Shown here: positions 8,079 to 30,262 of the stretch, in pieces | How positions within the stretch are numbered: the stretch's first letter is position 1 | Layout of the letters: each line of letters starts with the position of its first letter | Program-made: the position numbers and the translations under genes | The notes under the pieces: model-generated | Databases searched by the model: none | The model's input: only the letters and a program-made list of their open reading frames with translations | Told to the model about the DNA's origin: nothing | NCBI GenBank assembly: GCA_903868145.1 | Contig: CAIPTY010000064.1 | Coordinates: 1-34,436 of the forward strand | Length of the DNA stretch: 34,436 nucleotides | Direction: 5' to 3' | DNA from: an uncultured Desulfuromonadales bacterium | GTDB lineage: Bacteria; Desulfobacterota; Desulfuromonadia; Geobacterales; Pseudopelobacteraceae

Positions 8079-8167
8079 GGTAGTCTCCTCTCTTTTTGGG
8101 TGATGATGATTTCGATGAAACGGCAACGGTCATTGATTTGATTGTGGTCACCTCCTTGAAACAGAAA

Positions 8168-11464: not shown

Positions 11465-12032
11465 TGCCCTTAAAGAGCGATTGAACAAAATACTGGACCG
11501 TATTACTTCCCCTGAGTTCCTTACCAATGCCGGACTCGGTAATGAAATCGGCTTCTACATCTTCGATTACCCTGCTGAATACGAGCTTGAGGTTCGTCAG
11601 CATGTGGATTTTGTCGTTGATAAGGCTTCCAAGCGCAAACCGGAACTGAAAATAGCGCATATCAACCTTTTCAAGGTGGTCGTGGATTACCTTCAGGAAC
11701 GTGGTTATCTGGATAGAGCGGTTGCCCTGCAGCGGGACAAGGGCGATGAAGCTTTGTTCAAGGCGTTGAAGGGATTGCTGCACGAAGAAAAGATTGCAAA
11801 GGTCTTTGCCGAACTTGCCCAACCTGAAAACCATGACTTCGTATTTATGACCGGAATCGGCAACGCTTATCCGCTGATACGGTCACATACACTGCTGAAC
11901 AATCTTCACCCGCTTATGGGTGGGACTCCGTTGGTGGTCTTTTATCCTGGTGCATACGATGGTCAGGGACTGAGTCTGTTCGGCAAAATGAAGGATAACA
12001 ATTATTACCGGGCTTTCCGGCTTGTGGTGTGA
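11457..12032 (+). CDS. brxB: BREX protein BrxB (DUF1788)
   Basis: 191 residues, full length for DUF1788. Diagnostic parts include LGNEIGFYIFDYP (27-39) and a C-terminal HPLMGGTPLVVFYPGAYDGQ that leads into LFGKMKDNNYYRAFRLV. BrxB is a core component of type 1 BREX, thought to act as a structural partner in the modification and defence complex. It overlaps the end of brxA, implying coupled translation, and is followed after 26 bases by brxC. Confidence 0.93.
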   Translation: MNDALKERLNKILDRITSPEFLTNAGLGNEIGFYIFDYPAEYELEVRQHVDFVVDKASKRKPELKIAHINLFKVVVDYLQERGYLDRAVALQRDKGDEALFKALKGLLHEEKIAKVFAELAQPENHDFVFMTGIGNAYPLIRSHTLLNNLHPLMGGTPLVVFYPGAYDGQGLSLFGKMKDNNYYRAFRLVV

Positions 12033-12058
12033 CTACTTGATATAACCAGAGGGAATTC

Positions 12059-15000: not shown

Positions 15001-15637
15001 GTTCTACACTACGCAGAAACCGATATGGGACAAGCTCCAGACGTACATGGACGGTGATTTCAAAGCCAACCGGCAGGAGCTGGAAAAAGACGCTGATGCA
15101 AAGAAGGCATTGATTCGTCTGGATGAAATACTCAAAGCACCACGCCCGTATGGCATGATAAAGGAAATTGAAGGTCTGGTTGCTGCCATCGCTGTAGTAA
15201 ATACCCAATGTCTTGCCAAAGAAAAGGAACTTCTCCTTGTGAAGCTGGAGAAGGAAATAGCCGTTGTTGCCGAAAATCTGGGTGCATACAATGCGTCGGC
15301 AGACTTGCGTAACCAGGCACTGAAGCCGCTGCAGGACATCAAAAAGCAGGTACAGGAAGAATCACAGATACCCAACATGCATTACCAGCTGAACAAAGCA
15401 GTTGATGCCGTTGATACCGCAAACGAGCTTATTGAGAAGAGTGTCGAACCGACGACTACATCTGTTGGCACTGGCGTAATCCCACCAAAAGCCAAGCCGG
15501 TGAAGTATGTCAGCGCAACAAGTCTTTCCACGAAAACCTTCCTTGAGTCGGAACAGGATGTAAATGATTACCTGGAAGTATTGAAGAAAGAGCTTCTGGC
15601 GGCAGTGAACAACAGCATGCGAGTCAGAATCAAGTAA
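12059..15637 (+). CDS. brxC: BREX P-loop ATPase BrxC
   Basis: 1192 residues, normal for BrxC (DUF499-related large ATPase). Walker A GFFGSGKS is at 75-82 and Walker B IVFLVDE at 266-272, followed by GQFIGSE. The N-terminus MHIKNIFEKNLFRTINGVVKA is typical of the family. Long helical and coiled-coil-prone segments run from about 940 to 1140. BrxC is required for phage restriction in known type 1 systems and probably powers complex assembly or DNA handling. The site AGGG lies seven bases before ATG 12059. No frameshift or composition break is seen. Confidence 0.95.
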   Translation: MHIKNIFEKNLFRTINGVVKADQRDETVVWQELDEYVVTKELNRYLHQFFTSYLGAIDNPNDTAASARMGVWVSGFFGSGKSHFIKILSYLLGNCQAHDAESNQYRKAVEFFEEKIADTMFLEDIKRAVASDTDVILFNIDSKADNKDSKDAILAVFLRVFNEKLGFSGDDPHIANMERYLKSKGVLDTFHKAFKEASGNEWLKERDAYSFNRDHIVDALSHALGMTTESAGKWFDDAEDKFRINIEGFSKLVKEYLDSKGPQHRIVFLVDEVGQFIGSETNLMLNLQTVTEDLGRICNGRAWVIVTSQEDIDAVLGEVRGSKANDFSKIQGRFYTKLSLSSANTDEVIQARLLEKTGDARRALEDLWNLKGDILKNQISFTHSATLNNFSDSKSFIDNYPFAPYHFQLIQKVFESIRKAGATGMHLSRGERSMLDAFQSAATSISEERIGALVPLYEFYPAIESFLETIVKLTIQQADDNTGLEPFDTKLLRVLFLIRYVDIIKPNVDNLVTLCIEKVDDDRLTLRRKIEESLQRLEKETLITSNGDLYFFLTNEERDVSREIKNVDVASSEQTKQLAALIFEEVYKDDNKFRYPVNKRDYGINRICDGQFFGTNAGHDLTLEVITPLNDDYAAFNPAKCIMQSASTNGGCVIIKLADRQEFGRELRTLLQTEKYNRLKNDPSAPDSLRKILKDRIEQNRERKNRLIVLLETLLQESDYYAFGKTLQVKANSARSAKDEGINYLIENIYSKLGYLKVLKEEPLKEIAAILKSNDIGQYSLQVEGGDANELAVKEVKQFIDLSTGSNQKVLLNELVDRFVRRPFGWSEWEIILLVSRLFMAGDITLMSDGAALTPKDAVDPLSKQVKWKQVTIIKRKAVGEEELNKARTLGKDIFHVIGPEGEDQLNQFLRDQMVGWQDSLNSYKPLAQSGKYPGSSTIVNALKLVQKLLAIHDSYEFFDAFNKAKDDLNDLSDDMQELTGFYTTQKPIWDKLQTYMDGDFKANRQELEKDADAKKALIRLDEILKAPRPYGMIKEIEGLVAAIAVVNTQCLAKEKELLLVKLEKEIAVVAENLGAYNASADLRNQALKPLQDIKKQVQEESQIPNMHYQLNKAVDAVDTANELIEKSVEPTTTSVGTGVIPPKAKPVKYVSATSLSTKTFLESEQDVNDYLEVLKKELLAAVNNSMRVRIK

Positions 15638-15648
15638 CCGGAGATTCC

Positions 15649-18600
15649 ATGAACAAGGCGAAACTCAAATCATACGCTCCCGCAGCACGTCGGGATTTCA
15701 TACAGGCAGTAACCGACCGTGCTCACTTCTTCGGAATATCTGAAAAGGAGATTGTACCGGTCGAAGAGAGCGGAGATGTTGCCATCATAGGCGGTCGCCC
15801 ATTTCCACGAACTGTTGCTGTTCAAAGAAGAAAACTCGATGCACGGGTAAAGCGGGATGGGTTCGGTCAGGTTATGGAATCGGTAGCCTATACGTGGTTC
15901 AATCGTTTTCTTGCCCTTCGCTACATGGAACTTCATGGATATTTAGAACACGGCTTTCGAGTTCTCAGTAGTACGGGAAGCAGCACTACCCCGGAGATAC
16001 TTGACCATGCTGCCCAATTAGACTTGCCGGGTCTGAACAAGCAGAAGGTTACAGAGCTAAAGCTTGACGGTAACAAGGATGCTGAACTGTATCGAATATT
16101 GCTGGTAGCACAGTGCAACGCATTGCATTCTGCAATGCCCTTCCTTTTCGAGAAAATTGAAGATGAAACCGAACTGCTCCTTCCCGATAACCTGCTGCAT
16201 TCCGATTCGCTCATCCGCAAGTTGGTGACTGAAATTGAAGAAGAAGACTGGCAAGAGGTCGAAATTATCGGCTGGCTCTACCAGTTCTACATCTCCGAGA
16301 AGAAAGACCAGGTTATCGGCAACGTTGTTAAAAGTGAAGACATCCCGGCAGCTACTCAGCTCTTCACCCCAAATTGGATTGTGAAGTACATGGTTCAGAA
16401 CAGCCTGGGGAAGCATTGGCTGGCAACCTATCCTGATTCGCCACTCAAGGCGAAGATGGAATATTTCATTGAGCCTGCCGAGCAGACTGATGAAGTCAAA
16501 GCGCAGCTTGCGGCCATCACTCCCGATTCACTTGACCCGGAAAAACTGACTCTGCTTGACCCTGCTTCCGGTTCCGGGCACATCCTGGTTGAGGCATATG
16601 ATGTTTTCAAAGAAATCTACCTTGAGCGTGGGTATAGCAACCGAGATTTCCCCCGGCTGATTCTGGAAAAGAACCTCTTTGGACTGGATATTGATGACCG
16701 TGCAGCACAAATGGCTGGGTTTGCATTGTTGATGAAAGCTCGTAAGGATGACCGGCGTATTTTGCGGAGTGAAAATCCTGTAAAGCTTAATGTTATGGCA
16801 ATACAGGAAGTTGGAGTTTTTACTATAGAGAATTCTCATTGGGGTGAAAATTCAAAATCTATAAAGGAGTTGGTTAACCTCTTTGCTTCCGGTAAGACAT
16901 TAGGCTCTCTAATCTCGGTGCCTATTTCTGTAGGTGACAAGCTGCCGATAATCAGTACGTTAATTGACAAAAACTATCTTTCTGGCGACATTTTTGTCCG
17001 TGATGCTGCTATTAGTTTGATGCCAATATTGCGGCAAGCTGAAGTTCTGTACAAAAAATTTGATGCTGTAGTTATGAACCCACCGTATATGGGTGGTAAG
17101 GGCATGTACTCAAAAATAAAAGAATATTTAAAAGAATGCTATCCAGACTCGAAAACGGACATTTATGCTGCTTTTATGGAACGTGGATTGATGCTTTTAA
17201 AGCAGAATTCGCTGCTGTCTATGGTGACGATGCAAAGTTGGATGTTTCTTTCATCCTATGAAGCTTTAAGAGCAAATTTGATTGGTAGCAACACACTCGT
17301 TAATCTTGCGCATTTTGGAGCTCGTGCCTTTTCTGAAATATCTGGTGAGGTGGTCCAAACTGCCGCTTTTACATTTAATAATTCAAAACATCCTAACTGG
17401 AAACCAACATTTATTCGGCTGATTGATGGAAATGAGGAAGACAAAAAATTCAATCTTATTAAGGGAAACAATCGTTTCAACAATATAAGTCAAAAAGAAC
17501 TATTAGTGATTGATTCCAATATTATAGCTTACTGGGTAAGCAAGATTGCATTACATCATTTTGCGGGGGAAAAACTAGGAAATATTGCCGAAGCAAGGCG
17601 TGGACTACAAACAGGCAACTCTCCTCTTTTTATTAGGGAATGGTATGAAGTTTCTTCAGATATGACGCAATTCAAAAGTGCGTCAAAAGAAGAATTGATT
17701 AAATCGCCAAAAAAATGGTTTTTGTTCAATAACGGCGGAGAGTTTCGCAAATGGGCTGGGAGCGTTGATTATGTTGTAAACTGGAAAAATAATGGTGAAG
17801 ATATTAAAAACTCAGGGAAGGCTATTATACCAAGTGAAAACAGATACTTTCAGCCAATGCTCACTTGGTCACGTTTGAGCGGAGGAAAAACCGGATTTAG
17901 ATACGTCCGCCAAGGCGTAATACCTGGTGATACGGGACCAGGTATTTTCATTACTGACCCCTCCCGATTATATTTACTCCTCAGTTTTCTAAATTCAAAA
18001 GTAACTCAATTTTATCTTAATATAATAGTTCCAAACCTTACTTTTTTAAGTGGAGACATTGAAAAAATTCCGTGCGGACAAATAGTTTCAATTGGAGATA
18101 AGGTTGGTGTGAATGGAGAACGGTGTGTCGATATCACTCAATTAGATTGGGATTCTTACGAAACATCCTGGAATTTTGATGTGTTACCGCTTACTTCAAA
18201 CAAATTAAAAGACAAGAACATATCTAAATCATGGCAAAATTGGCAATCACAATGCCTCGCTAGATTATCTCTAATTCAAGAGCTTGAAACCGAAAATAAT
18301 CTCCTATTCATTGAAGCATTTGGATTGCAAGAAGAACTAAGTCCAGTACCGCCGGAAGAACAATTAACCCTCACTCGTGCAAATCTTGAATTGGATATTA
18401 AACGTCTAATCTCATATGCCATTGGCTGTATGATGGGACGGTACAGCATTGACCAGGCTGGGCTAGTGTATGCTAACAGTTGTAATAAAGGATTTGACCA
18501 ATCAAATTATAATTCATTCCCTGCAGACGATGATGGTATTGTACCAGTTATGGATACGGGTTGGTTCCCGGATGATGCAGCCAGCCGTTTTGAAGAGTTC

Positions 18601-19134
18601 CTAGTTGTTGCATGGTCACCTGAAACACTTGAAGAAAACTTGAAATTCACTGCCGACAGCTTGTCACCCAAAGGTAGTGAGACCCCACGGGAAACCATAC
18701 GCCGCTATATCAGCACCCAGTTCTTTAAAGACCACCTGCAAACCTACAAGAAACGCCCAATCTACTGGCTCTTCTCAAGCGGTAAGCAAAGGGCCTTCGA
18801 GTGCCTTGTTTACCTACACCGCTACAATGAATCCACTCTCTCCCGTATGCGCAATGAGTACGTTACCCCTTTGCAGGGCAAGTTCTCTGCGCAGGTTGAC
18901 TACCTGGCCAACGAAGTTGACTCGGCGTCATCAACAGCAGAACGCAACCGTTTACAAAAACAGCTTGATACTCTGCGGAAGAAGCAAGTAGAGCTTGCTT
19001 CATTCGACGACCTACTGCGCCACTACGCAGACCAGCGTATCAGTCTTGACCTTGATGACGGAGTGAAGGTGAACTACGGGAAGTTTGGAAGTCTGCTGGC
19101 AGAAGTGAAGGCTGTAACCGGGGGTAGTGAATAG
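15649..19134 (+). CDS. pglX: BREX adenine-specific DNA methyltransferase PglX
   Basis: 1161 residues. SAM-binding motif I is DPASGSGH at 304-311 and catalytic motif IV is NPPY at 477-480, the class that makes N6-methyladenine in non-palindromic BREX sites. PglX supplies both host marking and target recognition. The reading frame is intact. The ends are near 55 percent GC while roughly 16790-18660 is far richer in AT (by hand: 34/60 G+C at 16501-16560, 17/60 at 17461-17520, 33/60 at 18841-18900), indicating that the region from before motif IV through the target-recognition domain was exchanged. The last 200 residues include coiled-coil-like helices. It starts 11 bases after brxC. Confidence 0.95.
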   Translation: MNKAKLKSYAPAARRDFIQAVTDRAHFFGISEKEIVPVEESGDVAIIGGRPFPRTVAVQRRKLDARVKRDGFGQVMESVAYTWFNRFLALRYMELHGYLEHGFRVLSSTGSSTTPEILDHAAQLDLPGLNKQKVTELKLDGNKDAELYRILLVAQCNALHSAMPFLFEKIEDETELLLPDNLLHSDSLIRKLVTEIEEEDWQEVEIIGWLYQFYISEKKDQVIGNVVKSEDIPAATQLFTPNWIVKYMVQNSLGKHWLATYPDSPLKAKMEYFIEPAEQTDEVKAQLAAITPDSLDPEKLTLLDPASGSGHILVEAYDVFKEIYLERGYSNRDFPRLILEKNLFGLDIDDRAAQMAGFALLMKARKDDRRILRSENPVKLNVMAIQEVGVFTIENSHWGENSKSIKELVNLFASGKTLGSLISVPISVGDKLPIISTLIDKNYLSGDIFVRDAAISLMPILRQAEVLYKKFDAVVMNPPYMGGKGMYSKIKEYLKECYPDSKTDIYAAFMERGLMLLKQNSLLSMVTMQSWMFLSSYEALRANLIGSNTLVNLAHFGARAFSEISGEVVQTAAFTFNNSKHPNWKPTFIRLIDGNEEDKKFNLIKGNNRFNNISQKELLVIDSNIIAYWVSKIALHHFAGEKLGNIAEARRGLQTGNSPLFIREWYEVSSDMTQFKSASKEELIKSPKKWFLFNNGGEFRKWAGSVDYVVNWKNNGEDIKNSGKAIIPSENRYFQPMLTWSRLSGGKTGFRYVRQGVIPGDTGPGIFITDPSRLYLLLSFLNSKVTQFYLNIIVPNLTFLSGDIEKIPCGQIVSIGDKVGVNGERCVDITQLDWDSYETSWNFDVLPLTSNKLKDKNISKSWQNWQSQCLARLSLIQELETENNLLFIEAFGLQEELSPVPPEEQLTLTRANLELDIKRLISYAIGCMMGRYSIDQAGLVYANSCNKGFDQSNYNSFPADDDGIVPVMDTGWFPDDAASRFEEFLVVAWSPETLEENLKFTADSLSPKGSETPRETIRRYISTQFFKDHLQTYKKRPIYWLFSSGKQRAFECLVYLHRYNESTLSRMRNEYVTPLQGKFSAQVDYLANEVDSASSTAERNRLQKQLDTLRKKQVELASFDDLLRHYADQRISLDLDDGVKVNYGKFGSLLAEVKAVTGGSE

Positions 19135-19962
19135 ATGGCAATTGAAATCCCAAAGGTATTATACAAATACGAGCCAATAAATGAATACAGCTTGCGAAAC
19201 ATCAAGAATGCTACGCTGTTTTTCAATGCTCCAGCATCATTTAATGACCCGTTTGATTGCTCCTTAAATGAAGCTTCATTTGTTTATGGAGACAACGACC
19301 GAATTGAGCTTTTTAATTACTTACAGTCCACAGGCAGATTGGGTAACGTTGCACACGTTAAGCATGTAGATGAGATTCCTGCTCGTTTTAAAGAACAAGT
19401 TGAAGCAGCAATTATTGGCTGTATTCCAGAAATTGAAGACAAACAATTAAATCGGTATGGCTGCACTTGTTTTTCAGAATTAAATAATCATATCCTTATG
19501 TGGTCACATTACGCCAATTCTCACAAAGGAATGTGTTTGGAATTCGATACTTCTTTTGACCCATTTACAAGAGTCTTTCCCGTTCAGTATTCGCCTAATT
19601 TTCCTCAGATTAACCCAGTAAAAATGATTACAAATTTTGGGACTGACGTTATTTACAGAGAAAGTGTTAAGCCGCTGCTGACCAAATATGAATGTTGGGA
19701 ATACGAGGCAGAATGGCGGCTTTTCCATGTAGAACCACGAAAATTATATGGGTATCCAGTAGAAGCATTGAAAGCCGTATATTTTGGAACTCAAGTCGAT
19801 TTAGCGGATTTGGAAATCGTATGCCTGGTTCTTCAAGGACAGTGTAAGGACGTAAGGTTTTACCGTGCTCAAAAAGGTAAACTCAGATATGAAATTGAAT
19901 TTGTGGAATTTGACTACACGCCGCACATAGAATCAGTCAACTCAAGTGGAGGAAAGTCATGA
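19135..19962 (+). CDS. DUF2971 family protein inserted in the BREX operon
   Basis: 275 residues. The family pattern is clear: LYKYEPINEYSLRNI at the start, LFFNAPASFNDPFDC (about 28-42), then CTCFSELNNHILMWSHYA and GMCLEFD in the middle. DUF2971 proteins are widespread, recur near defence genes and have no firmly established activity. The ATG follows the pglX stop directly (TAG ATG), and its own stop overlaps the Fic start (ATGA). It is AT-rich (20/60 G+C at 19261-19320) unlike the Fic gene after it, so it was probably acquired separately yet fitted into the operon. A role as an accessory effector or regulator of BREX is inference. Confidence 0.85.
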   Translation: MAIEIPKVLYKYEPINEYSLRNIKNATLFFNAPASFNDPFDCSLNEASFVYGDNDRIELFNYLQSTGRLGNVAHVKHVDEIPARFKEQVEAAIIGCIPEIEDKQLNRYGCTCFSELNNHILMWSHYANSHKGMCLEFDTSFDPFTRVFPVQYSPNFPQINPVKMITNFGTDVIYRESVKPLLTKYECWEYEAEWRLFHVEPRKLYGYPVEALKAVYFGTQVDLADLEIVCLVLQGQCKDVRFYRAQKGKLRYEIEFVEFDYTPHIESVNSSGGKS

Positions 19963-20711
19963 ACTACCAAAATCGACTTGCTGACAACGACCTGCTCCAA
20001 GAGGAGATACGGGCTCATAGGCCGCTTGACACATACGAAGTAAAGCAGCTGAAAGAGTATTACCGTATTGGCCTGACTTGGTCCAGCAATGCCCTTGAGG
20101 GGAATAGCCTTACTGAGAGCGAAACCAAGGTTGTTCTGGAAGACGGCATTACCATTGGCGGAAAGCCGATGAAAGACCACTTTGAAGCAATTGGCCATAG
20201 TGAAGCTTTCGACCTGCTCTACAAGCTGGCGGATAGCCAGGACATCACGGAAGACGACATCCTTGGATTGCACCGACTTTTCTATTACCGGATTGAATCA
20301 GAAACTGCCGGAAAGTACCGGGAACGCAACGTTATCATCACCGGAACCGACTTTACACCGCCGACACCAGCGGCAGTTCCGCTTGCCATGCAGGAGTTCT
20401 TGGGTAACTTACCTTCTCTGAGGCAGCTTAATCCGGTTGAATATGCCGCTATGCTGCACCTCAACTTGGTAACCATCCACCCATTCATTGACGGCAACGG
20501 CAGAACCGCACGACTGCTTATGAATCTTGTCTTGCTGCAGGCTGGTTATCCCATCACCATCATTCCACCCATTATCCGAGGTGACTATATTTCTGCCCTG
20601 CGGGATTCCAATAAGGGTGATAACAAGCCGTTTATTGCCTTCATATCCTGCTGTGTGTGGGAAAGTCAGAAAGATTATATACGCCTGTTGGAAAGCCTTG
20701 ACCGTAAATAG
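19959..20711 (+). CDS. Fic-domain protein with intact active site and inhibitory motif
   Basis: 250 residues. The Fic signature HPFIDGNGRTAR is complete at 174-185, including the catalytic His and the phosphate-binding Arg. The N-terminal SNALEG (43-48) fits the inhibitory helix motif (S/T)xxxE(G/N), so this is a class II-like self-inhibited enzyme. Fic proteins usually transfer AMP from ATP to a hydroxyl side chain of a target protein; some remove it or use other nucleotides. It overlaps the DUF2971 stop by four bases and precedes pglZ by 21 bases, so it is expressed with BREX. The target could be a BREX protein, a host translation or gyrase target, or a phage protein; nothing here decides. 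Confidence 0.92.
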   Translation: MNYQNRLADNDLLQEEIRAHRPLDTYEVKQLKEYYRIGLTWSSNALEGNSLTESETKVVLEDGITIGGKPMKDHFEAIGHSEAFDLLYKLADSQDITEDDILGLHRLFYYRIESETAGKYRERNVIITGTDFTPPTPAAVPLAMQEFLGNLPSLRQLNPVEYAAMLHLNLVTIHPFIDGNGRTARLLMNLVLLQAGYPITIIPPIIRGDYISALRDSNKGDNKPFIAFISCCVWESQKDYIRLLESLDRK

Positions 20712-20732
20712 ACCTCGATTTAGCGAGAAACC

Positions 20733-23333
20733 ATGTCCAAACACCAACTGACAGATACACTTCAAAAGATTTTTCATGACGAGAATCAGCGCATCGTCTT
20801 CTGGTATGACGCCGATAAAGAGTTTGAAGACGGGCTGTCCGACTTGAACCTTGATGGTGTCAAAGTCGTTTTTCTCAACCAAACCGGTGCGCTTGAGGTG
20901 AAAATCCTCGTCGAGATGCAGGATACCGTAGGCAAGTACCTCCTCTACGCCCCCTTCGCAGAACCGGACGTCAAAGACGATTGGCTATTGGACATCCGCT
21001 TATACAGTCGCACGTTCCATGCAGACCAAGCTTCTATTCAGTTGAATGAGCTGGGACTTGGCAACTTGTCGTTGCGTCCCTATCTTGCAAAACGCAGGAA
21101 GTTCTTCAACAAAGACCGCATGAATCGCCTGAAGAAGTGGGTAAAACCTGAAGATACAGAAACTGACCTTGACCTGAAAATGCTGGCGGTTCTGACAAAA
21201 GCAGACTTGCCGGAGACATTCTCCATTTTGATGAAGCTTTTCGGGGAGCTTTGCCAGCACGAGGACAATCAACCGTTGCTCGTATCGCAGACGGCATGGG
21301 ATGAAATAAAGAAGTTCGACCTGACAGAGTCATTCTGGGAACAGGTCACTTTGACATTCGGATACAAGGAAAACACCCCTTCACTGAATGACCTTCTCAT
21401 CCGTATTCTGGTCACTGATTTTGCCAAGAGCAGTAAAGGTGCCGTACCCATTGCCCTGCAGCATTTCGTATTGGCCAACAAGAGTCTGTCCCTTACCGCC
21501 TCTGTCTTTGCCAACCACTGGCGCAGCAACATCAACCATTTCAGTTGCTACAACCAGTTATCCAAGACGGTTTCAAAACAGTTGAAGCTGGAAAACCACC
21601 TGGGCGACCTTGACGAACAGTCTTTGCTGGAAACCATGACCTTTGAAGAGGTTGAGCGAAGAATTATCCGCTGCCTGCTTGCAAAGATGAAAAACGGATT
21701 TGCCTTTGGTGATGAGATTAAATCCGTAATAGCCCAAAGGCTCGACGGATACTGGACGAAAGAAGCTTTTGCAACCGGCAATATCAATTACCGTGTGCTG
21801 TACGGTGCACTCCTGGCTGCTGCCGACCTGTTCGAGCTGAGAAGCAAGTACCAGGACGGCTTGAGTTACCCAGATGCCGTTAGCATGTACAACGCATATA
21901 CCCGTGAACTTCACCTGTTTGACCTGTTGTATCGACAGTTTCACGAACGGGCTGACCAGATTGAATTGGCAGGAACGGACATCCTGAAAGGGCTGCGGGA
22001 AGATGTGGAAGGGTGTTACGGCAACTGGTATATCGACCAACTTGCCCTATCGTGGGGGGCGCTCATTGAAGCACCCAACGGAAGCGGGCTTATCAATAAT
22101 TGGAGCATTAGAGATGTCGCCAACCAGCAGGACTTCTTTGCAAAGACCGTTAACAAGTCACTGGATGATTATCCTACCGGACGGGTCTATGTTGTTATCA
22201 GCGATGCCTTCCGCTACGAAGTGGCTGTGGAACTGACAGACGAGCTGAACGCCAAGTCCCGCTATGATGCCGATATTACATCCCAGTTAGGCGTGTTACC
22301 GAGTTACACATCATTGGGTATGGCTGCTCTTTTGCCACATCAGTCACTGGATTATAAAGCCAGCGGCGATATTGAAGTGAATGGGCTTCCCACGGCATCG
22401 CTGGAGCAGCGCAGCAAAATACTCGCTGAAGTCAGTGGTACGGCAATCAAGGCGGAAGAGCTGTTGGCAATGAGCAGAGAAAAGGGACGGGAGTTCGTCA
22501 AGCCGCACCGGATAATCTACATCTACCACAACCAGATTGATGCATCAGGTGATTCCGCTTCCACCGAATCCAACACGTTCAGTGCAGCACGTACCACTAT
22601 CAATGAGCTGACGGCTCTTACCGGCTATATCATCAACAATCTAAATGGCAGTATCGTGCATATCACTGCTGACCACGGCTTCCTGTTTCAGGAAACATCT
22701 CCAGGCCAGCAGGACAAAAGCGGCCTTGATTCTAAGCCTGACGGAACATTGAAAGCTAAGAAACGCTATCTGCTCGGCAATAACCTCGGTGGTAATCCGA
22801 AAGTATGGAAAGGGACTACTGCAACAACCGCTGGCACGACAAACAGCCTTGAGTTCTGGGTGCCGAAAGGTGCCAACAGATTCCATTTTGCCGGTGGCGC
22901 CAGATACGTTCATGGCGGAGCAATGCTGCAGGAAATAGTTCTCCCCATCGTTACGGTGAAGGGACTGCGTGGTGTTGAAAAACCTACTAAGGTCAATGTA
23001 TCCCTGCTTGGCACCGTTAAGAAGATAGTCAACAATATGCAGCGCTTCGAGTTTATCCAGACGGAAGCTATATCCGAGAAGGTTCGTCCGGTTACCATGT
23101 CGGTCTCTCTCCGGGATGATTCCGACCAGCTTATCAGCAACGAAATCAACCTGACTTTTGACAGTGCATCAGACCAGATGAACGACCGGAAGAAATCGGC
23201 AAGCCTCATTGTTAAATCAGGAACGTATGACAAGAAGAAAGAGTTTTACCTCGTAATGCGGGATACGGCTGACAATACCGAGATAGACAGAATTCCGCTG
23301 ACGATTGACCTGTCTTTTGGAAATGAATTCTGA
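20733..23333 (+). CDS. pglZ: BREX phosphatase-fold protein PglZ (type A)
   Basis: 866 residues, full length for type 1 PglZ. The N-terminus has RIVFWYDADKEFE (20-32). The alkaline-phosphatase-like core shows SDAFRYE at 490-496 and HITADHG with D647-H648-G649, metal-binding positions of the superfamily. PglZ is essential for known BREX function, probably through interaction with PglX; nuclease or phosphatase activity is debated. The ribosome binding site before ATG 20733 is weak (GCGAGAAACC). Composition is uniform with brxC. Confidence 0.95.
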   Translation: MSKHQLTDTLQKIFHDENQRIVFWYDADKEFEDGLSDLNLDGVKVVFLNQTGALEVKILVEMQDTVGKYLLYAPFAEPDVKDDWLLDIRLYSRTFHADQASIQLNELGLGNLSLRPYLAKRRKFFNKDRMNRLKKWVKPEDTETDLDLKMLAVLTKADLPETFSILMKLFGELCQHEDNQPLLVSQTAWDEIKKFDLTESFWEQVTLTFGYKENTPSLNDLLIRILVTDFAKSSKGAVPIALQHFVLANKSLSLTASVFANHWRSNINHFSCYNQLSKTVSKQLKLENHLGDLDEQSLLETMTFEEVERRIIRCLLAKMKNGFAFGDEIKSVIAQRLDGYWTKEAFATGNINYRVLYGALLAAADLFELRSKYQDGLSYPDAVSMYNAYTRELHLFDLLYRQFHERADQIELAGTDILKGLREDVEGCYGNWYIDQLALSWGALIEAPNGSGLINNWSIRDVANQQDFFAKTVNKSLDDYPTGRVYVVISDAFRYEVAVELTDELNAKSRYDADITSQLGVLPSYTSLGMAALLPHQSLDYKASGDIEVNGLPTASLEQRSKILAEVSGTAIKAEELLAMSREKGREFVKPHRIIYIYHNQIDASGDSASTESNTFSAARTTINELTALTGYIINNLNGSIVHITADHGFLFQETSPGQQDKSGLDSKPDGTLKAKKRYLLGNNLGGNPKVWKGTTATTAGTTNSLEFWVPKGANRFHFAGGARYVHGGAMLQEIVLPIVTVKGLRGVEKPTKVNVSLLGTVKKIVNNMQRFEFIQTEAISEKVRPVTMSVSLRDDSDQLISNEINLTFDSASDQMNDRKKSASLIVKSGTYDKKKEFYLVMRDTADNTEIDRIPLTIDLSFGNEF

Positions 23334-23349
23334 CCAGCAAGGATTATCT

Positions 23350-25389
23350 ATGGATAACGAATTAAATTGTAGCTTGGACAGCCTCCTGAATCAGCACTTT
23401 GCCGGTAAAGTCGTCAGGAAAGACCTGACCAAGCTGGTTAAGGAAGGGGCAAACGTCCCTGTCTACGTTCTGGAATACCTTCTCGGGATGTATTGCGCTT
23501 CCGACAACGAAGAGGTCATTCAAGAGGGTTTGAAGAACGTCAAAAAGATTCTGGCTGAAAACTATGTCCGTCCTGATGAAGCCGAAAAGGTTAAATCTAA
23601 AATCAAGGAACTGGGAACCTATAAGGTCATTGACAAGATTACGGTCAAGCTTAATGAAAAACGGGATGTGTACGAAGCACTTCTGTCGAACCTTGGCGTA
23701 AAAGGTGTCGAAATATCCAGCAGTACCGTAAAAAAGTATGAAAAACTGCTGGTGGGCGGTATCTGGTGCATCGTCACACTGAACTACTTTTACGAAGAAA
23801 ATATGAAAGGCTCACCTTTCAGCATCGGCGACTTGAAACCTATCCAGATGCCTAACATGGATATGGAGGGGCTTTTCGAGGGGCGCAAATCTTTCACGCA
23901 AGACCAATGGATGGATGTTCTGGTTCGTTCTACAGGCATGGAGCCGTCAGTTCTGGAGTCCCGTGTTAAGTGGCACCTGGTCGCCAGAATGATTCCTTTC
24001 GTTGAGAACGGTTACAACGTCTGCGAGCTGGGACCACGGGGAACCGGCAAGAGTCATATCTACAAGGAAATCAGTCCGAACAGTATTCTCGTTTCCGGTG
24101 GCCAGACCACCGTAGCAAATCTCTTTTACAACATGGGGTCGCATCAGGTCGGCCTTGTCGGAATGTGGGATGTCGTAGCCTTTGATGAAGTTGCCGGAAT
24201 TTCCTTCAAGGACAAAGACGGTATTCAGATAATGAAGGACTACATGGCATCCGGCTCTTTTGCGAGGGGTAAAGACCAGATTTCAGCCAATGCTTCAATG
24301 GTATTTGTCGGCAACATCAATCAGCCGGTGGATACCCTTGTTAAAACCAGCCACCTGTTGGCACCTTTCCCGGAGAACATGATTGATTCAGCGTTCTTCG
24401 ACCGCTTCCATTGCTATATCCCCGGCTGGGAAGTTCCGAAGATGCGCCCGGAGTTTTTCACCAACCAATATGGCTTGATTGTGGACTACCTCGCCGAGTA
24501 TCTGCGGGAGATGAGGAAATACAATTTCTCAGATGCCATCGACAAGTTTTTCAAGCTTGGTAACAATCTTAATCAGCGGGATACGATAGCTGTCCGCAGA
24601 ACTGTATCCGGTCTGTTAAAGCTCCTCTACCCGCATGGCGAATTTGACAAGGAAGCTGTTCGCCAGTGCCTGCAATATGCCCTTGAAGTCCGCAGAAGGA
24701 TAAAAGAACAGCTCAAAAAGATTGGCGGCATGGAATTCTATGACGTTCATTTCAGCTATATCGACAATGAGAGTATGGAAGAACGGTTCGTCGGCGTACC
24801 GGAACAGGGCGGCACATCGCTAATTCCTGAAGGTCAGCTGAAACCTGGCACGCTGCACACCGTTTCAACCGGAAGTGGCGGAATGCTTGGCTTGTACCGC
24901 CTTGAGCTTCAAGTAATTGGCGGCAGCGGTAAGCTTATGCTGTCAGGATTCGGCACATCGACGAACGCCAAGGAACCGGTCAAGGTAGCTTATGACTACT
25001 TCAAAGCAAACCTGTCGAGAGTGAGCGGTGTCGCCAAGGCCATTGACCATGATTACCACATGCACATGGTTGAGCTGCACAATACGGGACCGGCAGCAGC
25101 TTTGACGATTGCTTCATTTGTCTGCTTCTGCTCTGGATTGTTGAATAAGCCGATACAAGGGCAAATGGTCGTCTTGGGCGACATGAGCCTCGGCGGGAGC
25201 ATCATACCGGCTGAGAACCTTGCTGAGTCCCTCCAGGTAGCCTTTGATGCAGGGGCAAAGCGGATACTAATACCGATGAGCAGTGTGACCGACATCCCGA
25301 CTATTCCGGGTGAGCTGTTTGCCAAGTTCCAGACAAGTTTCTATTCTGACCCGGTAGATGCGGTGTTTAAGGCGTTGGGAGTGGATTAG
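23350..25389 (+). CDS. brxL: BREX AAA+/Lon-like protein BrxL
   Basis: 679 residues. The AAA+ core has Walker A GPRGTGKS at 228-235 and Walker B VVAFDE at 275-280. A C-terminal Lon-like domain begins near 500. At the Lon catalytic serine position the sequence is GPAAA (A582), and at the catalytic lysine position of the GxVLPIGGLKEK motif it reads LAES (S627), so the domain should be proteolytically inactive. BrxL is the type 1 effector or remodelling factor that closes the operon. A longer frame from 23305 overlaps pglZ, but ATG 23350 has AAGGA eight bases upstream and lies 16 bases after the pglZ stop. Confidence 0.95.
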   Translation: MDNELNCSLDSLLNQHFAGKVVRKDLTKLVKEGANVPVYVLEYLLGMYCASDNEEVIQEGLKNVKKILAENYVRPDEAEKVKSKIKELGTYKVIDKITVKLNEKRDVYEALLSNLGVKGVEISSSTVKKYEKLLVGGIWCIVTLNYFYEENMKGSPFSIGDLKPIQMPNMDMEGLFEGRKSFTQDQWMDVLVRSTGMEPSVLESRVKWHLVARMIPFVENGYNVCELGPRGTGKSHIYKEISPNSILVSGGQTTVANLFYNMGSHQVGLVGMWDVVAFDEVAGISFKDKDGIQIMKDYMASGSFARGKDQISANASMVFVGNINQPVDTLVKTSHLLAPFPENMIDSAFFDRFHCYIPGWEVPKMRPEFFTNQYGLIVDYLAEYLREMRKYNFSDAIDKFFKLGNNLNQRDTIAVRRTVSGLLKLLYPHGEFDKEAVRQCLQYALEVRRRIKEQLKKIGGMEFYDVHFSYIDNESMEERFVGVPEQGGTSLIPEGQLKPGTLHTVSTGSGGMLGLYRLELQVIGGSGKLMLSGFGTSTNAKEPVKVAYDYFKANLSRVSGVAKAIDHDYHMHMVELHNTGPAAALTIASFVCFCSGLLNKPIQGQMVVLGDMSLGGSIIPAENLAESLQVAFDAGAKRILIPMSSVTDIPTIPGELFAKFQTSFYSDPVDAVFKALGVD

Positions 25390-25484: not shown

Positions 25485-28400
25485 ATGTTAGGATGGCTTC
25501 TGAATAGTCTTTCACGCCGAGCAAGCATTTGGGTGAACGAGTGGAACAATACAAGCCTAGACCGCAATAAGCTCAATTATTCATCCTTACAACGAATACT
25601 GTTACACGCAAGTGAAAGCCCTTTTTCATTTGTTTTGAGCATTTGGTTTTTTATATGTGCAATATCTATAGGAACCTGGATTGGTCAAGAATACTTTGAC
25701 CTCTGTTTGGTCACCTATTTGTGGAAGGAATCCGAACTTCTAACATATTTCGGAACTCTGTGGACTCTTCAGGGAACTGTTTGTGCGCTAGTTTATCCTA
25801 TCGTAATTGCCTTTGTTGCAGTTTTGTTGCAAAGAAGGAGCACAGTAAAATTAAGTCTTCGTCTTTATTATATCGACGCTGCAGTCATTCCATCTGGCGC
25901 AAGTGCGATTGCACTATTAACCTGGATGGGAATTGAGCACCTATCCATTTCCTATCTCCCTACTGAATTGTTGTCTGTTGTAATGGTTGGAAATTCTATT
26001 TGGTTCGTTTTAAACTCGATGCTCACAGGATGGTTTCTATATCGGACTGTGCAATATTTAAACGATGATGAACGACTTCAAGTTTTTAATCGTTTTGCTG
26101 TACAAATTGCTTTTCCACGTGAAGTAAAGAACCACCTCCTTGGGCTTATATTCTCAAATGCCCAATCTCAAGGATTCATTCCCGGAAAAGATTACACCAG
26201 TGATGATGATTGCCCAAAGGTATCACTTTATCCTGTATCTGAAGGTTTACCCTGTATCCGGGCCTACTGCAAACGCGAACAAGCAGTCATTGATATACGC
26301 TTACGTTTATTATCGTGGGGAGTATTCCTTTGGTTACGCCAAGCCAATAAAATAAAGTACCCCCAAAGTAACTCTCGACACTCTCAAGTGTTTCCTCTTC
26401 TAGAAATCCCGATTATTCCAGGTGAAACTTATAATGGTGATGTAATTCTTTGCCGAGTTGTCGGCAATATTATGCCAGGGACAGTGGCATCATTTTTGAT
26501 TCGACATTCCATTATATTTAGTGCTCCCCCTTCACCCAACATATCATTTTCAAGCTATGAAATTATGGAGGAACTCGCTGTTGAGGCACTTGTTCTTGCG
26601 GAACAGAAGAGATTCAATACTGCAAAAGAGGTCATTCGGGGGCTAGTAAACCTTCACGCAAATCTAATAAGAGCCGGTGCATTTGTTAATGACAACAACT
26701 TGCCTGACAATGCAGCTTTAATTCCCGACCCATACGGTTTCAGTTCTCTTCGGATACATGAAAATTGGTTACGCGTATACCGGCAACTTGCAGAAATTGC
26801 TGTCAAAGAGTTGCAATCTGATTCGAGTCTTTTTAAACAACACTGTTACCTCGCATACAAATTGGTTAATTTGCTTCAAGACCAAGACATTAACATTCTT
26901 CTATATCTTCAGAATTTATCGTCCCATTTGATGTATCGGATGGGTAACTGGTGGTCAAACAAAATAGAAGAGCATGGACAGATTACTCACAATGCAATTT
27001 ATGGAGTCATCCTTCCACTGTCTTTAGATAGACTTTATGATAGCGCGATTAAGGAATTTATTGGAGGATGGGAAGCACTTTGTTTGCGTGAGAAAGACAA
27101 AAATCTGGATACTGCAGATGCCACATGGGCTCACTATTCACGTCACGCGCTTTTTGCCGCTACTCATGCTGAACATACCGTTAAAATGATACTAGGTGCG
27201 GTGTTACGCGGTGATAAAACTGCAGCAGTCTGGCTTACAGATTCATTTCAAAAATGGTGGAATAACCAAAGGCACAAGTTTGATTCAAATCAATTTGGGA
27301 GCAACGAGAATCCACTTCTAACATTTGAGTGTGTGCATAAAAATTGGCAAGAAGTAAGAGAAAACCTGGAAGCAGTTCCAAATGGGCAACAAGAGCATAT
27401 TCTGGCGCAAAATGTTGTTTCAACAGTTCTTAGAAAATATTGGTCAGATTTAAGGCTTGTCCTAATATTGGTTCTTCTCGATTGGACGCCTGCAGAAGCA
27501 CCATCAAACTCTCTCACCTTGGAACTTATCAGTGCGCTTCTACATAATCGTGACTTGAAGCATGGAGGAAATATTGACGCTGATGTTAGTAGAAATGCGT
27601 CTAAAGTTCTTAATAGATTATTACACGTGCAACTTACCGACCGTGATTATGAGAATAGATTAGATAAAATAGTCGAATATGCCCAAGAGTTAAGAACTCC
27701 CAGCATGGTTTCTGGTCGTATTTATAGCAGTTCTGGTGCAAACGATATTCACTCTCTGTGTGTGGCTCAGTGCCAATTTCTCATAGCAATAGCGTCTGCC
27801 GAAATACCACTATCAAGTTATCTTAAGAAGGCAGTAACAAAATGGGCGAATGACCTGCAACAGTTGGAGCGGTGCTCGCGTCTGGCAAAACAGTTGAAAG
27901 AATGTACTGAATCAGAGTCATTTATTACTAAAACCGCAATCACTTCAACGATTCGCAAAGATATTGGCCTATCAGAGGATTTGAAAGACCCCCATGATTG
28001 GGTCATCGCTTCGCTTAGTGACTTTATTATACTTGTGAGTGAAACGCACGAAGTCACATTGGCAAGTGCTCAATTATCGCAAGTGAGAATCAATGAAGTA
28101 GCTGAGATGGTATCCAAGTATGTGTTAACGGGTGATAAAGATACCTTTCCTTTTTCTCTCAAGCCGTCTTTCCTAGAATCTTCAGAAATTACAGAGCCAC
28201 ATTATTTTACAATTTCCGGTATCGGGAAAGGTGCTTACACTGAACCTCCGCTTGAAACTGTAGGGTCTCATTTAGACTCAACTTTCAATGAGTATGTTTA
28301 TAAGTCAGTCGCAAGCTCAGTCATTGCCGATAGAATAAAAATAGACAAACTGAAACCCATTCGCTCTGACTCTGAAGTATCTTTTTTTGAAGACATGCAG

Positions 28401-28775
28401 CGAAGAGCGGATACTTTCCACAAGAAAGGGTTAACTCCATTGCTACTTGTTTCTGAGCATTGTCACTTAGAATGGCTCAATACGTGGCGATATCTTTCAG
28501 GACGTGCTGAGCAGACAAGTGATGTATCTTTCCGACAACCAAGGGAAGGTGATAGTCAGGGCTTAATCGGCTATTTTAACGATATTCCTGCCTATAGAGT
28601 ACCACTCTCAGTAGATAGATGTTTCGTGATTCCAGCTGAAGAATTTGAGGTTCTGAAATACACCCTGGATAGTAATGGCTCACCCATATCGGTAACAGTG
28701 ACGCAAGATGAAAACCATAAAATTAGTTTGAAATTTGAATGGTCTTTTCATTCATCACCCAGGAGTAAAAAATAA
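25485..28775 (+). CDS. Large membrane-anchored protein of unknown family, partner of the ApeA-like gene
   Basis: 1096 residues; not recognised. The N-terminus has a short amphipathic start and four likely transmembrane helices (about 47-66, 93-115, 129-149 and 160-186). The remaining 900 or so residues are soluble and mostly helical, suggesting a repeat-like scaffold, with a final beta-rich stretch from about 960. No P-loop, nuclease or protease motif is visible. Its TAA shares a base with the ATG of the ApeA-like gene (TAATG at 28773-28777), indicating coupled translation. The gene is AT-rich (20/60 G+C at 26881-26940), unlike brxL before it. AAGGAA lies before ATG 25485. A membrane sensor or anchor for the HEPN partner is my inference. 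Confidence 0.85.
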   Translation: MLGWLLNSLSRRASIWVNEWNNTSLDRNKLNYSSLQRILLHASESPFSFVLSIWFFICAISIGTWIGQEYFDLCLVTYLWKESELLTYFGTLWTLQGTVCALVYPIVIAFVAVLLQRRSTVKLSLRLYYIDAAVIPSGASAIALLTWMGIEHLSISYLPTELLSVVMVGNSIWFVLNSMLTGWFLYRTVQYLNDDERLQVFNRFAVQIAFPREVKNHLLGLIFSNAQSQGFIPGKDYTSDDDCPKVSLYPVSEGLPCIRAYCKREQAVIDIRLRLLSWGVFLWLRQANKIKYPQSNSRHSQVFPLLEIPIIPGETYNGDVILCRVVGNIMPGTVASFLIRHSIIFSAPPSPNISFSSYEIMEELAVEALVLAEQKRFNTAKEVIRGLVNLHANLIRAGAFVNDNNLPDNAALIPDPYGFSSLRIHENWLRVYRQLAEIAVKELQSDSSLFKQHCYLAYKLVNLLQDQDINILLYLQNLSSHLMYRMGNWWSNKIEEHGQITHNAIYGVILPLSLDRLYDSAIKEFIGGWEALCLREKDKNLDTADATWAHYSRHALFAATHAEHTVKMILGAVLRGDKTAAVWLTDSFQKWWNNQRHKFDSNQFGSNENPLLTFECVHKNWQEVRENLEAVPNGQQEHILAQNVVSTVLRKYWSDLRLVLILVLLDWTPAEAPSNSLTLELISALLHNRDLKHGGNIDADVSRNASKVLNRLLHVQLTDRDYENRLDKIVEYAQELRTPSMVSGRIYSSSGANDIHSLCVAQCQFLIAIASAEIPLSSYLKKAVTKWANDLQQLERCSRLAKQLKECTESESFITKTAITSTIRKDIGLSEDLKDPHDWVIASLSDFIILVSETHEVTLASAQLSQVRINEVAEMVSKYVLTGDKDTFPFSLKPSFLESSEITEPHYFTISGIGKGAYTEPPLETVGSHLDSTFNEYVYKSVASSVIADRIKIDKLKPIRSDSEVSFFEDMQRRADTFHKKGLTPLLLVSEHCHLEWLNTWRYLSGRAEQTSDVSFRQPREGDSQGLIGYFNDIPAYRVPLSVDRCFVIPAEEFEVLKYTLDSNGSPISVTVTQDENHKISLKFEWSFHSSPRSKK

Positions 28776-30262
28776 TGGCAGACAGAAGTCTTAATGAAGC
28801 CTTTGAAGCTTTTGGAGAATGGTTCTTGCCGGAAGACCAGGAGCGTAAAATTGCCGGACATCTAAATTACACCTCAGACGGTACTGAACTGCATCTAAAT
28901 GAATCGTTTCAAGTATTGCGTGGAATTATTGGAGCAGGAACCCAAATGCAGGACTACCCAGTAATTTATGGGATAACGCGTGAAGGTGAAGCAATAACGT
29001 TGTTAAAGGCACAGCGAATGGGTGTTTCTTTTAATTTTGGAGCTGGTGGTCTGCGGGAACCCGAGCGTATTCGTTCTTCCTGGCTACTTGTTGGCGCTCA
29101 TGTGCCCCCTGATTTTCTCTATGATAATATGAGTTTTAGAGTTCCTGGCTTACAGATTTGGCTCTCTCAAAAGTCGATTGAGCATTCATTTGCAAAAGAA
29201 CTAGAAACGAACAACTACTCTGTCACATATGTAATTCGCAATATGCCAACGGAATCTATCCGTCTCGCTGCAATTGATGCAAACATAAAATTTAACTTTG
29301 ATTGGGCCACAAAATGTGACGAATTTACATCAATTGAGTTAAACGTTTCGGCTTGGGTAACTATCAGTCCTGATAAACCCCAGAATATTGACTGGTTTAT
29401 CCGAGAGGAAAATAAGATTACAACGATGCTTTCCTTTATATCCGGCTCAACAATGTCACCTGATTGCATACGCACGTCAATTAACGAGAATCACAAGGCA
29501 AATTTCCTGATTACTTTAAGGGAATCAAAGTGCTGTTCTTACACTAATCCCAACGATTTTTTTATGATGAAAGCTGGAATGGGGATAGAATTTGAAAACG
29601 TTGCATCAGCTTGGTTTGAAGAATACCCAAAGTTGCACATGCCAAGCCAATTAGGCTTGAGTGTGTTGTCTTCAGAAAATCTTTGGCTTCATGTCAAATT
29701 CTTATCATATATGCAGGCACTTGAAGGGTTTCACCGGGGATTGTACGAAGGAACCTATATGGAAGACAGTCAGTATCAGGCTGTAAGAAGTGTCTTATGT
29801 GCGGCTATCCCGACAAGTATTGAAGTTGACCATAAGGCTTCGCTAACTTCACGTATCCGTTATGGTAATCAAATATCGCTGAATAAGAGACTAACTGAGC
29901 TGTCAAAGTTATTGTCAGAACCGATACGCGCTACGATTTTGGGCAGTGACGGTAAAATCCCGCGAAAGTGGATAGACACAAGAAATTACTACACGCATTG
30001 GGATGAGGAATTGAAGGAAAATGTTTTGGACAATCAGGGCATGTATGATGCTACTGTGCGTATGTCTCACTTTTTGCGGGCGCTGTATCTTAATCTAATG
30101 GGAATACCGCAAGAATCCGTTCTAAAGTCACTTCATAACACAAGCAACTCTTCACAGCATTTGATTCAAATCAACTTAAGAGAGCATACGCCAAGTAATG
30201 ACCGTGCAGGCATGATTATGTCGATACAGGAAATAGATAACGGTAGTCGTGATAAAATATAG
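28775..30262 (+). CDS. ApeA-like HEPN-domain protein (probable anti-phage RNase)
   Basis: 495 residues. The N-terminal 60 residues fit the ApeA N-terminal domain: FGEWFLPEDQERKIAGHLNYTSDGTELHL. Near the C-terminus RNYYTH at 403-408 gives the HEPN RX4H catalytic motif, followed by a helical end. ApeA proteins are single-gene anti-phage systems thought to act as HEPN ribonucleases causing abortive infection. Here the gene is locked to a large membrane protein by an overlapping stop and start, which is not the usual stand-alone arrangement. It is AT-rich like its partner. Assignment to ApeA is by pattern memory; the HEPN motif itself is clear. Confidence 0.8.
   Translation: MADRSLNEAFEAFGEWFLPEDQERKIAGHLNYTSDGTELHLNESFQVLRGIIGAGTQMQDYPVIYGITREGEAITLLKAQRMGVSFNFGAGGLREPERIRSSWLLVGAHVPPDFLYDNMSFRVPGLQIWLSQKSIEHSFAKELETNNYSVTYVIRNMPTESIRLAAIDANIKFNFDWATKCDEFTSIELNVSAWVTISPDKPQNIDWFIREENKITTMLSFISGSTMSPDCIRTSINENHKANFLITLRESKCCSYTNPNDFFMMKAGMGIEFENVASAWFEEYPKLHMPSQLGLSVLSSENLWLHVKFLSYMQALEGFHRGLYEGTYMEDSQYQAVRSVLCAAIPTSIEVDHKASLTSRIRYGNQISLNKRLTELSKLLSEPIRATILGSDGKIPRKWIDTRNYYTHWDEELKENVLDNQGMYDATVRMSHFLRALYLNLMGIPQESVLKSLHNTSNSSQHLIQINLREHTPSNDRAGMIMSIQEIDNGSRDKI

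What the first reader, a model, noticed from the sequence alone, without database searches (positions are those of the whole stretch)
25485..30262. Overlapping membrane-scaffold plus ApeA-like HEPN gene pair
A 1096-residue protein with four N-terminal transmembrane helices and no known domain is fused in expression (TAATG overlap) to an ApeA-like protein with an RNYYTH HEPN site. ApeA is known as a single-gene system. The pair is AT-rich, lies directly downstream of BREX and has its own candidate promoter, so it may be an undescribed membrane-triggered two-gene defence system.
Basis: partly seen in the sequence, partly recalled or inferred. Interest (0 to 1): 0.82.

Follow-up and report, generated by a model that had tools for sequence, protein, structure and literature searches.

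The report
Membrane protein with capsid-like domain beside ApeA
Next to a standard phage-defence gene sits a separate, mobile membrane protein whose tail is predicted to fold like the shell protein of the viruses that attack bacteria, which could be a new way for cells to catch viruses while they assemble.

Summary
Both genes exist as described. MemL (my label; 25485-28775, 1096 aa) has four N-terminal membrane helices and overlaps by one base an ApeA gene (28775-30262) with the ApeA_NTD1 and HEPN_Apea domains and R403-NYYT-H408. No promoter was found in the gap before MemL.

The proposed two-gene system is not supported. None of 24 MemL relatives has an ApeA in the DNA examined around it, and none of five inspected ApeA relatives has a MemL.

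The surprise is inside MemL. It matches no Pfam, NCBIfam or PADLOC family, but its C-terminal 265 residues, folded alone (pLDDT 85, pTM 0.81), match HK97-fold phage capsids and encapsulins: all 50 listed VIA-align rows by title (best Z 11.0), and no BFVD row at E<=1e-3 is named anything else. Against this, TM-scores stay below 0.5 and sequence profiles show nothing.

The family is mobile: 244 plasmid records, many Betaproteobacteria, and some loci inside type I RM, type IIG RM/Druantia-like and BREX islands. The membrane part is the most conserved region. Leading model: a single-gene, membrane-anchored sensor or trap of assembling capsids. The fold is likely; the function is inferred.

The parts
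25485..28775 (+). MemL: 1096-aa membrane protein of an unnamed family (four TM helices, long helical region, HK97-fold C-terminal domain)
   Evidence: ORF; no Pfam, PADLOC or NCBIfam family at E<=1 and no convincing PDB sequence hit; relatives
25620..26057 (+). Residues 46-191: four transmembrane helices, N and C termini predicted inside the cell; the most conserved part of the family
   Evidence: Hydropathy and charge pattern, model helices, mean pairwise identity 49.7% against 31.6-38.7% elsewhere
26058..27977 (+). Residues 192-831: mostly helical cytoplasmic region, fold not assigned
   Evidence: Model mb6041bebff18; helical look-alikes only in the fold searches
27978..28772 (+). Residues 832-1096: predicted HK97 (phage capsid / encapsulin) fold
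   Evidence: Domain-alone model pLDDT 85.3, pTM 0.81; 50 of 50 listed VIA rows HK97-fold by title, best Z 11.0; Foldseek PDB best E 1.3e-4; BFVD best E 2.6e-5
28773..28777 (+). TAATG: stop of MemL and start of ApeA share one base
28775..30262 (+). ApeA-family HEPN gene, 495 aa
   Evidence: PF18862 ApeA_NTD1 1.6e-36 (residues 13-276) and PF18739 HEPN_Apea 2.5e-29 (residues 310-447); PADLOC PDC-S58 7.8e-55
29981..29998 (+). HEPN motif R403-NYYT-H408
10856..25389 (+). BREX operon upstream: brxA, brxB, brxC, pglX (Eco57I-type methylase), DUF2971, Fic, pglZ, brxL

Best explanation
The locus is two independent single-gene units that came to lie together behind BREX and are probably co-transcribed. 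The second gene is an ordinary ApeA: an N-terminal domain, thought to sense, and a C-terminal HEPN domain that, as in the family, would cut RNA on infection (inferred from family membership). The first, MemL, is a mobile family of its own. Shown by computation: four membrane helices with a cytoplasmic C terminus, about 640 mostly helical residues, and a C-terminal domain predicted to have the HK97 capsid fold. Proposed mechanism (inferred): the capsid-like domain, held at the inner face of the membrane, recognises or co-assembles with newly made phage capsid protein. This clusters MemL and switches on its conserved membrane part (pore or depolarisation), stopping infection before release. A conserved membrane part with faster-changing cytoplasmic parts suits an effector with a recognition arm.
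For: Family and mobility: 244 plasmid records and 14 genome loci from a one-pattern scan. Five enterobacterial plasmid members align with the genome family end to end (hhalign probability 100%, E 2.7e-40). Within the window's class 1 of 277 genomes has it, the window's own, while its nearest kin in the tree are Burkholderia and Cupriavidus: horizontal transfer. Fold. Conserved TM part in two clades: 49.7% against 31.6-38.7%, and 61.5% against 34.2-46.0%. Defence context: window BREX+ApeA; L019 with MemL between an HsdS-like ORF (by eye) and DUF3800 plus hsdR, hsdM upstream; L003 beside annotated type I restriction genes; L023 between a type IIG RM enzyme and a DruE-like helicase; L002 beside a protein with an LmuA-like N terminus; L009 about 2.4 kb from an annotated 'Abortive infection family protein'; L005 beside an annotated TrlF ATPase. 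Precedent for capsid sensing: CapRel SJ46 is activated by newly made major capsid protein (PMC9712102, abstract read).
Against: No functional data. The capsid link is structural only: no HK97 family in PHROGs, Pfam or PDB profile searches, and hhalign against 2 encapsulins and 3 Phage_capsid proteins gave probabilities of 0.3% and 0.2% (very shallow alignments). Foldseek TM-scores are 0.15-0.49, below the usual 0.5, with rmsd 5.8-23.7 A. Foldseek with the whole protein listed no capsid in its 50 rows. VIA-align re-scores Foldseek's candidates, so it is not an independent search. The models rest on 12-13 sequences, and the five domain models differ (mean pLDDT 85.3 down to 61.0). For most relatives I identified no defence gene nearby. 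The HK97 part is not clearly less conserved than the other cytoplasmic parts (33.3% against 32.2-38.7%). No channel was modelled.
Confidence: 0.38

Rival explanations
1. Capsid poison or trap: MemL has no active membrane effector. Its HK97-like domain joins assembling procapsids and, being tethered to the membrane, blocks shell closure, so infected cells lyse without infectious virions.
For: The same fold evidence. Assembly-blocking defence exists for tails: Tab (PMC10884400, abstract read).
Against: The membrane part is the most conserved region, more than a mere anchor needs; the 640-residue helical region has no role in this model.
Confidence: 0.2
2. One reading: MemL and ApeA form one membrane-triggered two-gene system in which MemL activates the HEPN RNase.
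For: One-base overlap, similar low GC, shared strand. The HEPN system Tha is triggered by phage tail proteins (PMC11087260, passages read), so a structural mimic next to a HEPN RNase is conceivable.
Against: 0 of 24 MemL relatives have an ApeA in the DNA examined; no HEPN_Apea match in 24 genomes or plasmid records; 5 of 5 inspected ApeA relatives lack MemL.
Confidence: 0.08
3. MemL is not a defence protein: it is a membrane-tethered shell or scaffold, or a plasmid or surface-exclusion function, that travels on mobile DNA and therefore often lands in islands.
For: Many relatives look like solo genes or lie on plasmids; HK97-fold encapsulins are cellular shells (PMC8987985, passage read).
Against: It lies inside a restriction operon in L019 and between defence genes in L023. 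No recurrent cargo-like or plasmid-transfer partner stood out among the neighbours, though the family tallies were capped at 25 of 111.
Confidence: 0.2
4. The HK97 match is superficial: a generic alpha/beta domain that happens to score against capsids.
For: TM-scores below 0.5, no sequence signal, no capsid among the 50 listed whole-protein Foldseek rows.
Against: All 50 listed VIA rows have the same fold by title, with rank 50 still at Z 8.7; the tool's note gives a typical best Z of 7-8 and 4-5 at rank 50 for models without a clear match (higher only for mostly helical ones). The PDB and BFVD libraries agree. VIA-align of the full-length model gave the same answer before the domain was cut out (36 of 50 rows).
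Confidence: 0.12

Closest known systems
ApeA (ApeA_NTD1 + HEPN_Apea; PADLOC PDC-S58)
   Same: The downstream protein has both domains over their curated cut-offs, in that order over nearly the whole length, and the R-X4-H motif.
   Different: Here it overlaps the end of a MemL gene; the five inspected relatives have no MemL.
Encapsulins and HK97-fold phage major capsid proteins
   Same: MemL residues 832-1096 match their fold in a predicted model.
   Different: MemL carries four TM helices and about 640 helical residues in front, shows no sequence similarity, and had no match in the phages collection.
CapRel SJ46 (capsid-sensing toxin-antitoxin defence)
   Same: Proposed trigger: newly made major capsid protein (PMC9712102, abstract).
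   Different: CapRel pyrophosphorylates tRNAs (abstract); MemL matches no such domain and would itself carry a capsid-like domain.
Tab (tail assembly blocker)
   Same: The rival model also has assembly interference (PMC10884400, abstract).
   Different: Tab acts on tails; no sequence comparison was made here.

Membership tests
ApeA (window 28775-30262) | ApeA N-terminal domain | tested here: met
   PF18862 1.6e-36, 126.6 bits against cut-off 25.5
ApeA (window 28775-30262) | Apea-like HEPN domain with R-X4-H | tested here: met
   PF18739 2.5e-29; R403-NYYT-H408
ApeA (window 28775-30262) | RNase activity and phage protection | not testable with these tools
   needs experiment
Encapsulin / HK97 major capsid protein (MemL) | HK97 fold | tested here: met
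   Predicted model only: residues 832-1096, 50 of 50 listed VIA rows by title, best Z 11.0; Foldseek E 1.3e-4. TM-scores below 0.5
Encapsulin / HK97 major capsid protein (MemL) | Sequence match to a capsid or encapsulin family | tested here: not met
   therefore not filed as a member
Encapsulin / HK97 major capsid protein (MemL) | Soluble stand-alone shell protein (feature recalled) | tested here: not met
   1096 aa with four TM helices
Encapsulin / HK97 major capsid protein (MemL) | Assembles into closed icosahedral shells | not testable with these tools
   needs electron microscopy
Two-gene MemL-ApeA system | Conserved adjacency across genomes | tested here: not met
   0 of 24 relatives
Anti-phage defence system (MemL) | Recurrent location in defence islands | tested here: inconclusive
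   Identified beside likely defence genes in 6 of 24 relatives (L002, L003, L005, L009, L019, L023) plus the window; neighbours were not scored locus by locus and no background rate was measured
Anti-phage defence system (MemL) | Protection against phage | not testable with these tools
   needs experiment

The most novel reading that the evidence does not exclude
MemL founds a new kind of immune protein: a membrane-anchored mimic of the phage major capsid protein that uses the HK97 fold to catch assembling capsids and kill the cell or the virion, carried as a single gene on conjugative plasmids and inside BREX, restriction-modification and Druantia-like islands.
Probability: 0.33. Interest if true: 0.92.

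Novelty: categorically new. Interest (0 to 1): 0.73.

Why it matters
The HK97 fold is known from viral shells and from encapsulin compartments. A membrane protein family that carries it, travels on plasmids and sits inside several unrelated defence islands would be a further setting for the fold. If the inferred role holds, bacteria turned the virus's shell building block against it, and capsid recognition by homotypic assembly becomes directly testable. The gene is compact, appears to stand alone, and already occurs on E. coli plasmids (19 of 5426 complete E. coli genomes carry the L007 version, 18 of them on plasmids), so tests in laboratory strains are easy. The result also corrects the reading of the pair as one system.

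Tried and rejected
Two-gene system: rejected on neighbourhood evidence. Known family: no Pfam, NCBIfam or PADLOC match at E<=1. PDB sequence search with the whole protein: only chance-level hits; with the C-terminal profile: five rows, best a ThiH stretch at 7.7e-4 and a protease stretch at 1.4e-3, both partial and not followed up. Own promoter: not found. Phage-borne copies: none in the phages collection, none in four viral-contig scans. A single-protein genome scan found nothing; the alignment-based one, with one degenerate pattern, gave 14 loci and is a lower bound. Whole-protein Foldseek listed only other proteins, long helical ones in the main, best E 7.3e-3, so the helical region is unassigned. 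hhalign to encapsulins and capsids was negative but based on 2 and 3 sequences. The PF18739 search over 24 genomes or records had a control that rang nowhere, so that call does not show its own sensitivity; the model does detect the window protein, an ApeA_NTD1 search recovered the window's gene, and tblastn with its own positive control agrees for the loci.

Literature: the listings of searches (at most 10-20 rows each; one search matched 1,040 papers and listed 15) showed no paper describing a membrane or defence protein with an HK97-fold domain; in two papers opened for it, HK97 occurs only in reference lists (PMC12458937 and PMC13190303, passages). The library lacks most subscription journals.
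Full report
What is there. Both genes are present at the stated coordinates. MemL, my label for the large protein, runs 25485-28775 (1096 aa); the second ORF runs 28775-30262 (495 aa). The stop TAA and the start ATG share one base. Upstream lies a BREX operon: brxA, brxB, brxC and brxL by PADLOC, a PglZ protein and an Eco57I-type methylase at the pglX position, with DUF2971 and Fic genes between them. MemL and ApeA have GC of 40.5% and 41.1% against 47.8-49.4% for brxA, brxB, brxC, pglZ and brxL; pglX (43.4%) and DUF2971 (38.2%) are also low. No promoter-like site is listed in the 95-base gap before MemL.

The ApeA gene is ordinary. It has the ApeA N-terminal domain (E 1.6e-36) and the Apea-like HEPN domain (2.5e-29), both far over the curated cut-offs, PADLOC's PDC-S58 model over nearly the whole length, and R403-NYYT-H408. 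Anantharaman et al. 2013 list ApeA as embedded in R-M operons in epsilonproteobacteria (PMC3710099, passages read).

MemL is a family. It matches no Pfam, PADLOC or NCBIfam model at E<=1. tblastn finds 244 plasmid records, all under 60% identity, 227 of them Escherichia, Klebsiella or Enterobacter; in only 2 does one place cover 80% of the query. None of 50,697 phage records matches. One of 277 genomes of the window's class has it, the window's own; two of 395 drawn from the phylum, the window's included. An alignment-based scan of one genome for each of 84,980 species, with one degenerate pattern, gave 14 loci, best Burkholderia seminalis (34% identity, residues 1-1088). Profile comparison joins the genome family with five enterobacterial plasmid members end to end (probability 100%, E 2.7e-40). 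In a maximum-likelihood tree of 20 proteins the window groups with Burkholderia (100/97) and then Cupriavidus (98/97).

Is ApeA its partner? I examined 25 relative loci; L012 and L019 carry the same protein, which leaves 24 relatives in separate records (L004, L025 and L026 share one truncated protein). Nineteen have more than 1 kb of sequence beyond an uninterrupted gene end (L003 among them, split into two ORFs); L004 and L010 are interrupted by insertion sequences; L025, L026 and L027 end at or near the gene. With the window's ApeA as query, phmmer over ORFs of 90 aa or more and tblastn over the DNA found nothing at E<=0.01. PF18739 gave no match in 24 of 24 of their genomes or plasmid records (its control genomes rang nowhere, so this is the weaker test). 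Conversely, of 50 plasmid records with an ApeA relative I inspected the five best-ranked; none has a MemL-like gene within about 4.5 kb (fewer bases at the start of one record), by annotation or by tblastn with 18 family members, while the ApeA query finds all five. The pair is so far peculiar to this genome.

What surrounds the relatives? In L019 the gene starts six bases after an HsdS-like ORF (by eye), with an hsdM further up and DUF3800 and hsdR after it. In L023 it lies between a type IIG restriction-methylase and a DruE-like helicase, with a DrmD/BrxH-like helicase further up. L003 lies beside annotated type I restriction genes; L002 beside a 1335-aa protein with an LmuA-like N terminus; L009 about 2.4 kb from an annotated abortive-infection protein; L005 beside an annotated TrlF ATPase. 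That is 6 of 24; L011 has a neighbour related to the L005 TrlF, and 2 of 126 neighbours match PADLOC's Ppl (which two was not shown). For the rest I identified no defence gene, and several lie among ordinary chromosomal genes. I scanned 126 neighbours in bulk, which gives capped family tallies, not per-locus calls, and measured no background rate, so enrichment is suggested, not shown.

What MemL looks like. AlphaFold2 with 13 sequences gave a full-length model with pLDDT 79.4 and pTM 0.66. Four N-terminal helices and the charge pattern (5 positive/3 negative before the first helix, 1/4 in loop 1-2, 4/1 in loop 2-3, 0/1 in loop 3-4) predict both ends inside the cell. Then come about 640 mostly helical residues. 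VIA-align of the whole model put HK97-fold shells (by title) in 36 of 50 rows, all within residues 854-1096, the other 14 being mostly helical or designed proteins on other parts; Foldseek alone on the whole protein listed no capsid. I then folded residues 832-1096 alone (12 rows): pLDDT 85.3, pTM 0.81 for the best of five models, whose means range down to 61.0. Foldseek against the PDB: five rows at E<=1e-3, best T. maritima encapsulin 7lil at 1.3e-4; 47 of the 50 listed rows are titled encapsulin, capsid, virus-like particle or phage vertex, the other three being an engineered nanocage (7mh2, two chains) and the Mmp1 complex (8won). VIA-align, which re-scores Foldseek's candidates: 50 of 50 listed rows HK97-fold by title (8won taken from its sister entry 8wol), best 2e0z_C Z 11.0, rmsd 4.4, 190 residues; rank 50 still Z 8.7. 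The element order (hairpin strands, a 27-residue helix, helix-strand-helix, then a run of strands) is what I recall for the E-loop, spine helix, A-domain and P-domain.

Against the capsid reading: TM-scores are 0.15-0.49, and no sequence method sees it. I therefore call it a predicted HK97 fold, not a member of the encapsulin or capsid families; common descent is not shown.

Conservation. Over 56 pairs of family members under 60% identity, residues 46-191 are 49.7% identical, the other regions 31.6-38.7%; the HK97 part is 33.3%. In five enterobacterial members the figures are 61.5% against 34.2-46.0%. So the membrane part is the constrained core; the cytoplasmic parts, the HK97 part among them, change faster. 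Polar residues inside the membrane helices (Q96, T98, N177) are invariant over the 13 aligned rows.

Reading. I take MemL as a stand-alone mobile gene whose capsid-like domain recognises or joins assembling phage capsids at the membrane, with either a membrane effector (favoured) or plain assembly poisoning (rival). Capsid sensing has a precedent in CapRel (PMC9712102, abstract) and assembly interference in Tab (PMC10884400, abstract). Shown: genes, family, distribution, lack of partnership in the loci examined, predicted fold, conservation pattern. Inferred: defence role, trigger, effector. The listings of seven literature searches showed no such protein in print in the library searched.

Noticed in passing
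window 19135-20711: A DUF2971 gene (GC 38%) and a Fic/DOC gene sit inside the BREX operon between pglX and pglZ.
   Followed up: no
window 7098-8126, 30479-30754 and 31558-32235: RecT, an HU-like ORF (recognised by eye) and SRAP flank the defence island, suggesting an integrated mobile element.
   Followed up: no
L002 1348-12315: On a Ciceribacter plasmid MemL is flanked by two unmatched genes (524 and 448 aa) and a 1335-aa protein with an LmuA-like N terminus and weak TPR signal; possibly another undescribed defence locus.
   Followed up: partly
L005 1962-4643 and L011 9353-11974: An annotated TrlF family AAA-like ATPase lies next to MemL on a Raoultella plasmid; the gene beside MemL on an Edwardsiella plasmid, annotated histidinol-phosphatase, is related to it (blastp E 1.2e-20).
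   Followed up: partly
L004 and L010: MemL copies on Cupriavidus and Klebsiella variicola plasmids are cut short next to IS66 and IS903 genes; two other Cupriavidus genomes (L025, L026) carry the same truncated protein.
   Followed up: partly
L003 4878-8076: The Paracoccus MemL is split into two overlapping ORFs, dividing the membrane part from the rest; either a natural split or a frameshift.
   Followed up: no
L023 99-19662: A Caenimonas locus strings together a DrmD/BrxH-like helicase, a type IIG restriction-methylase, MemL, an unmatched gene and a 2142-aa DruE-like helicase.
   Followed up: partly
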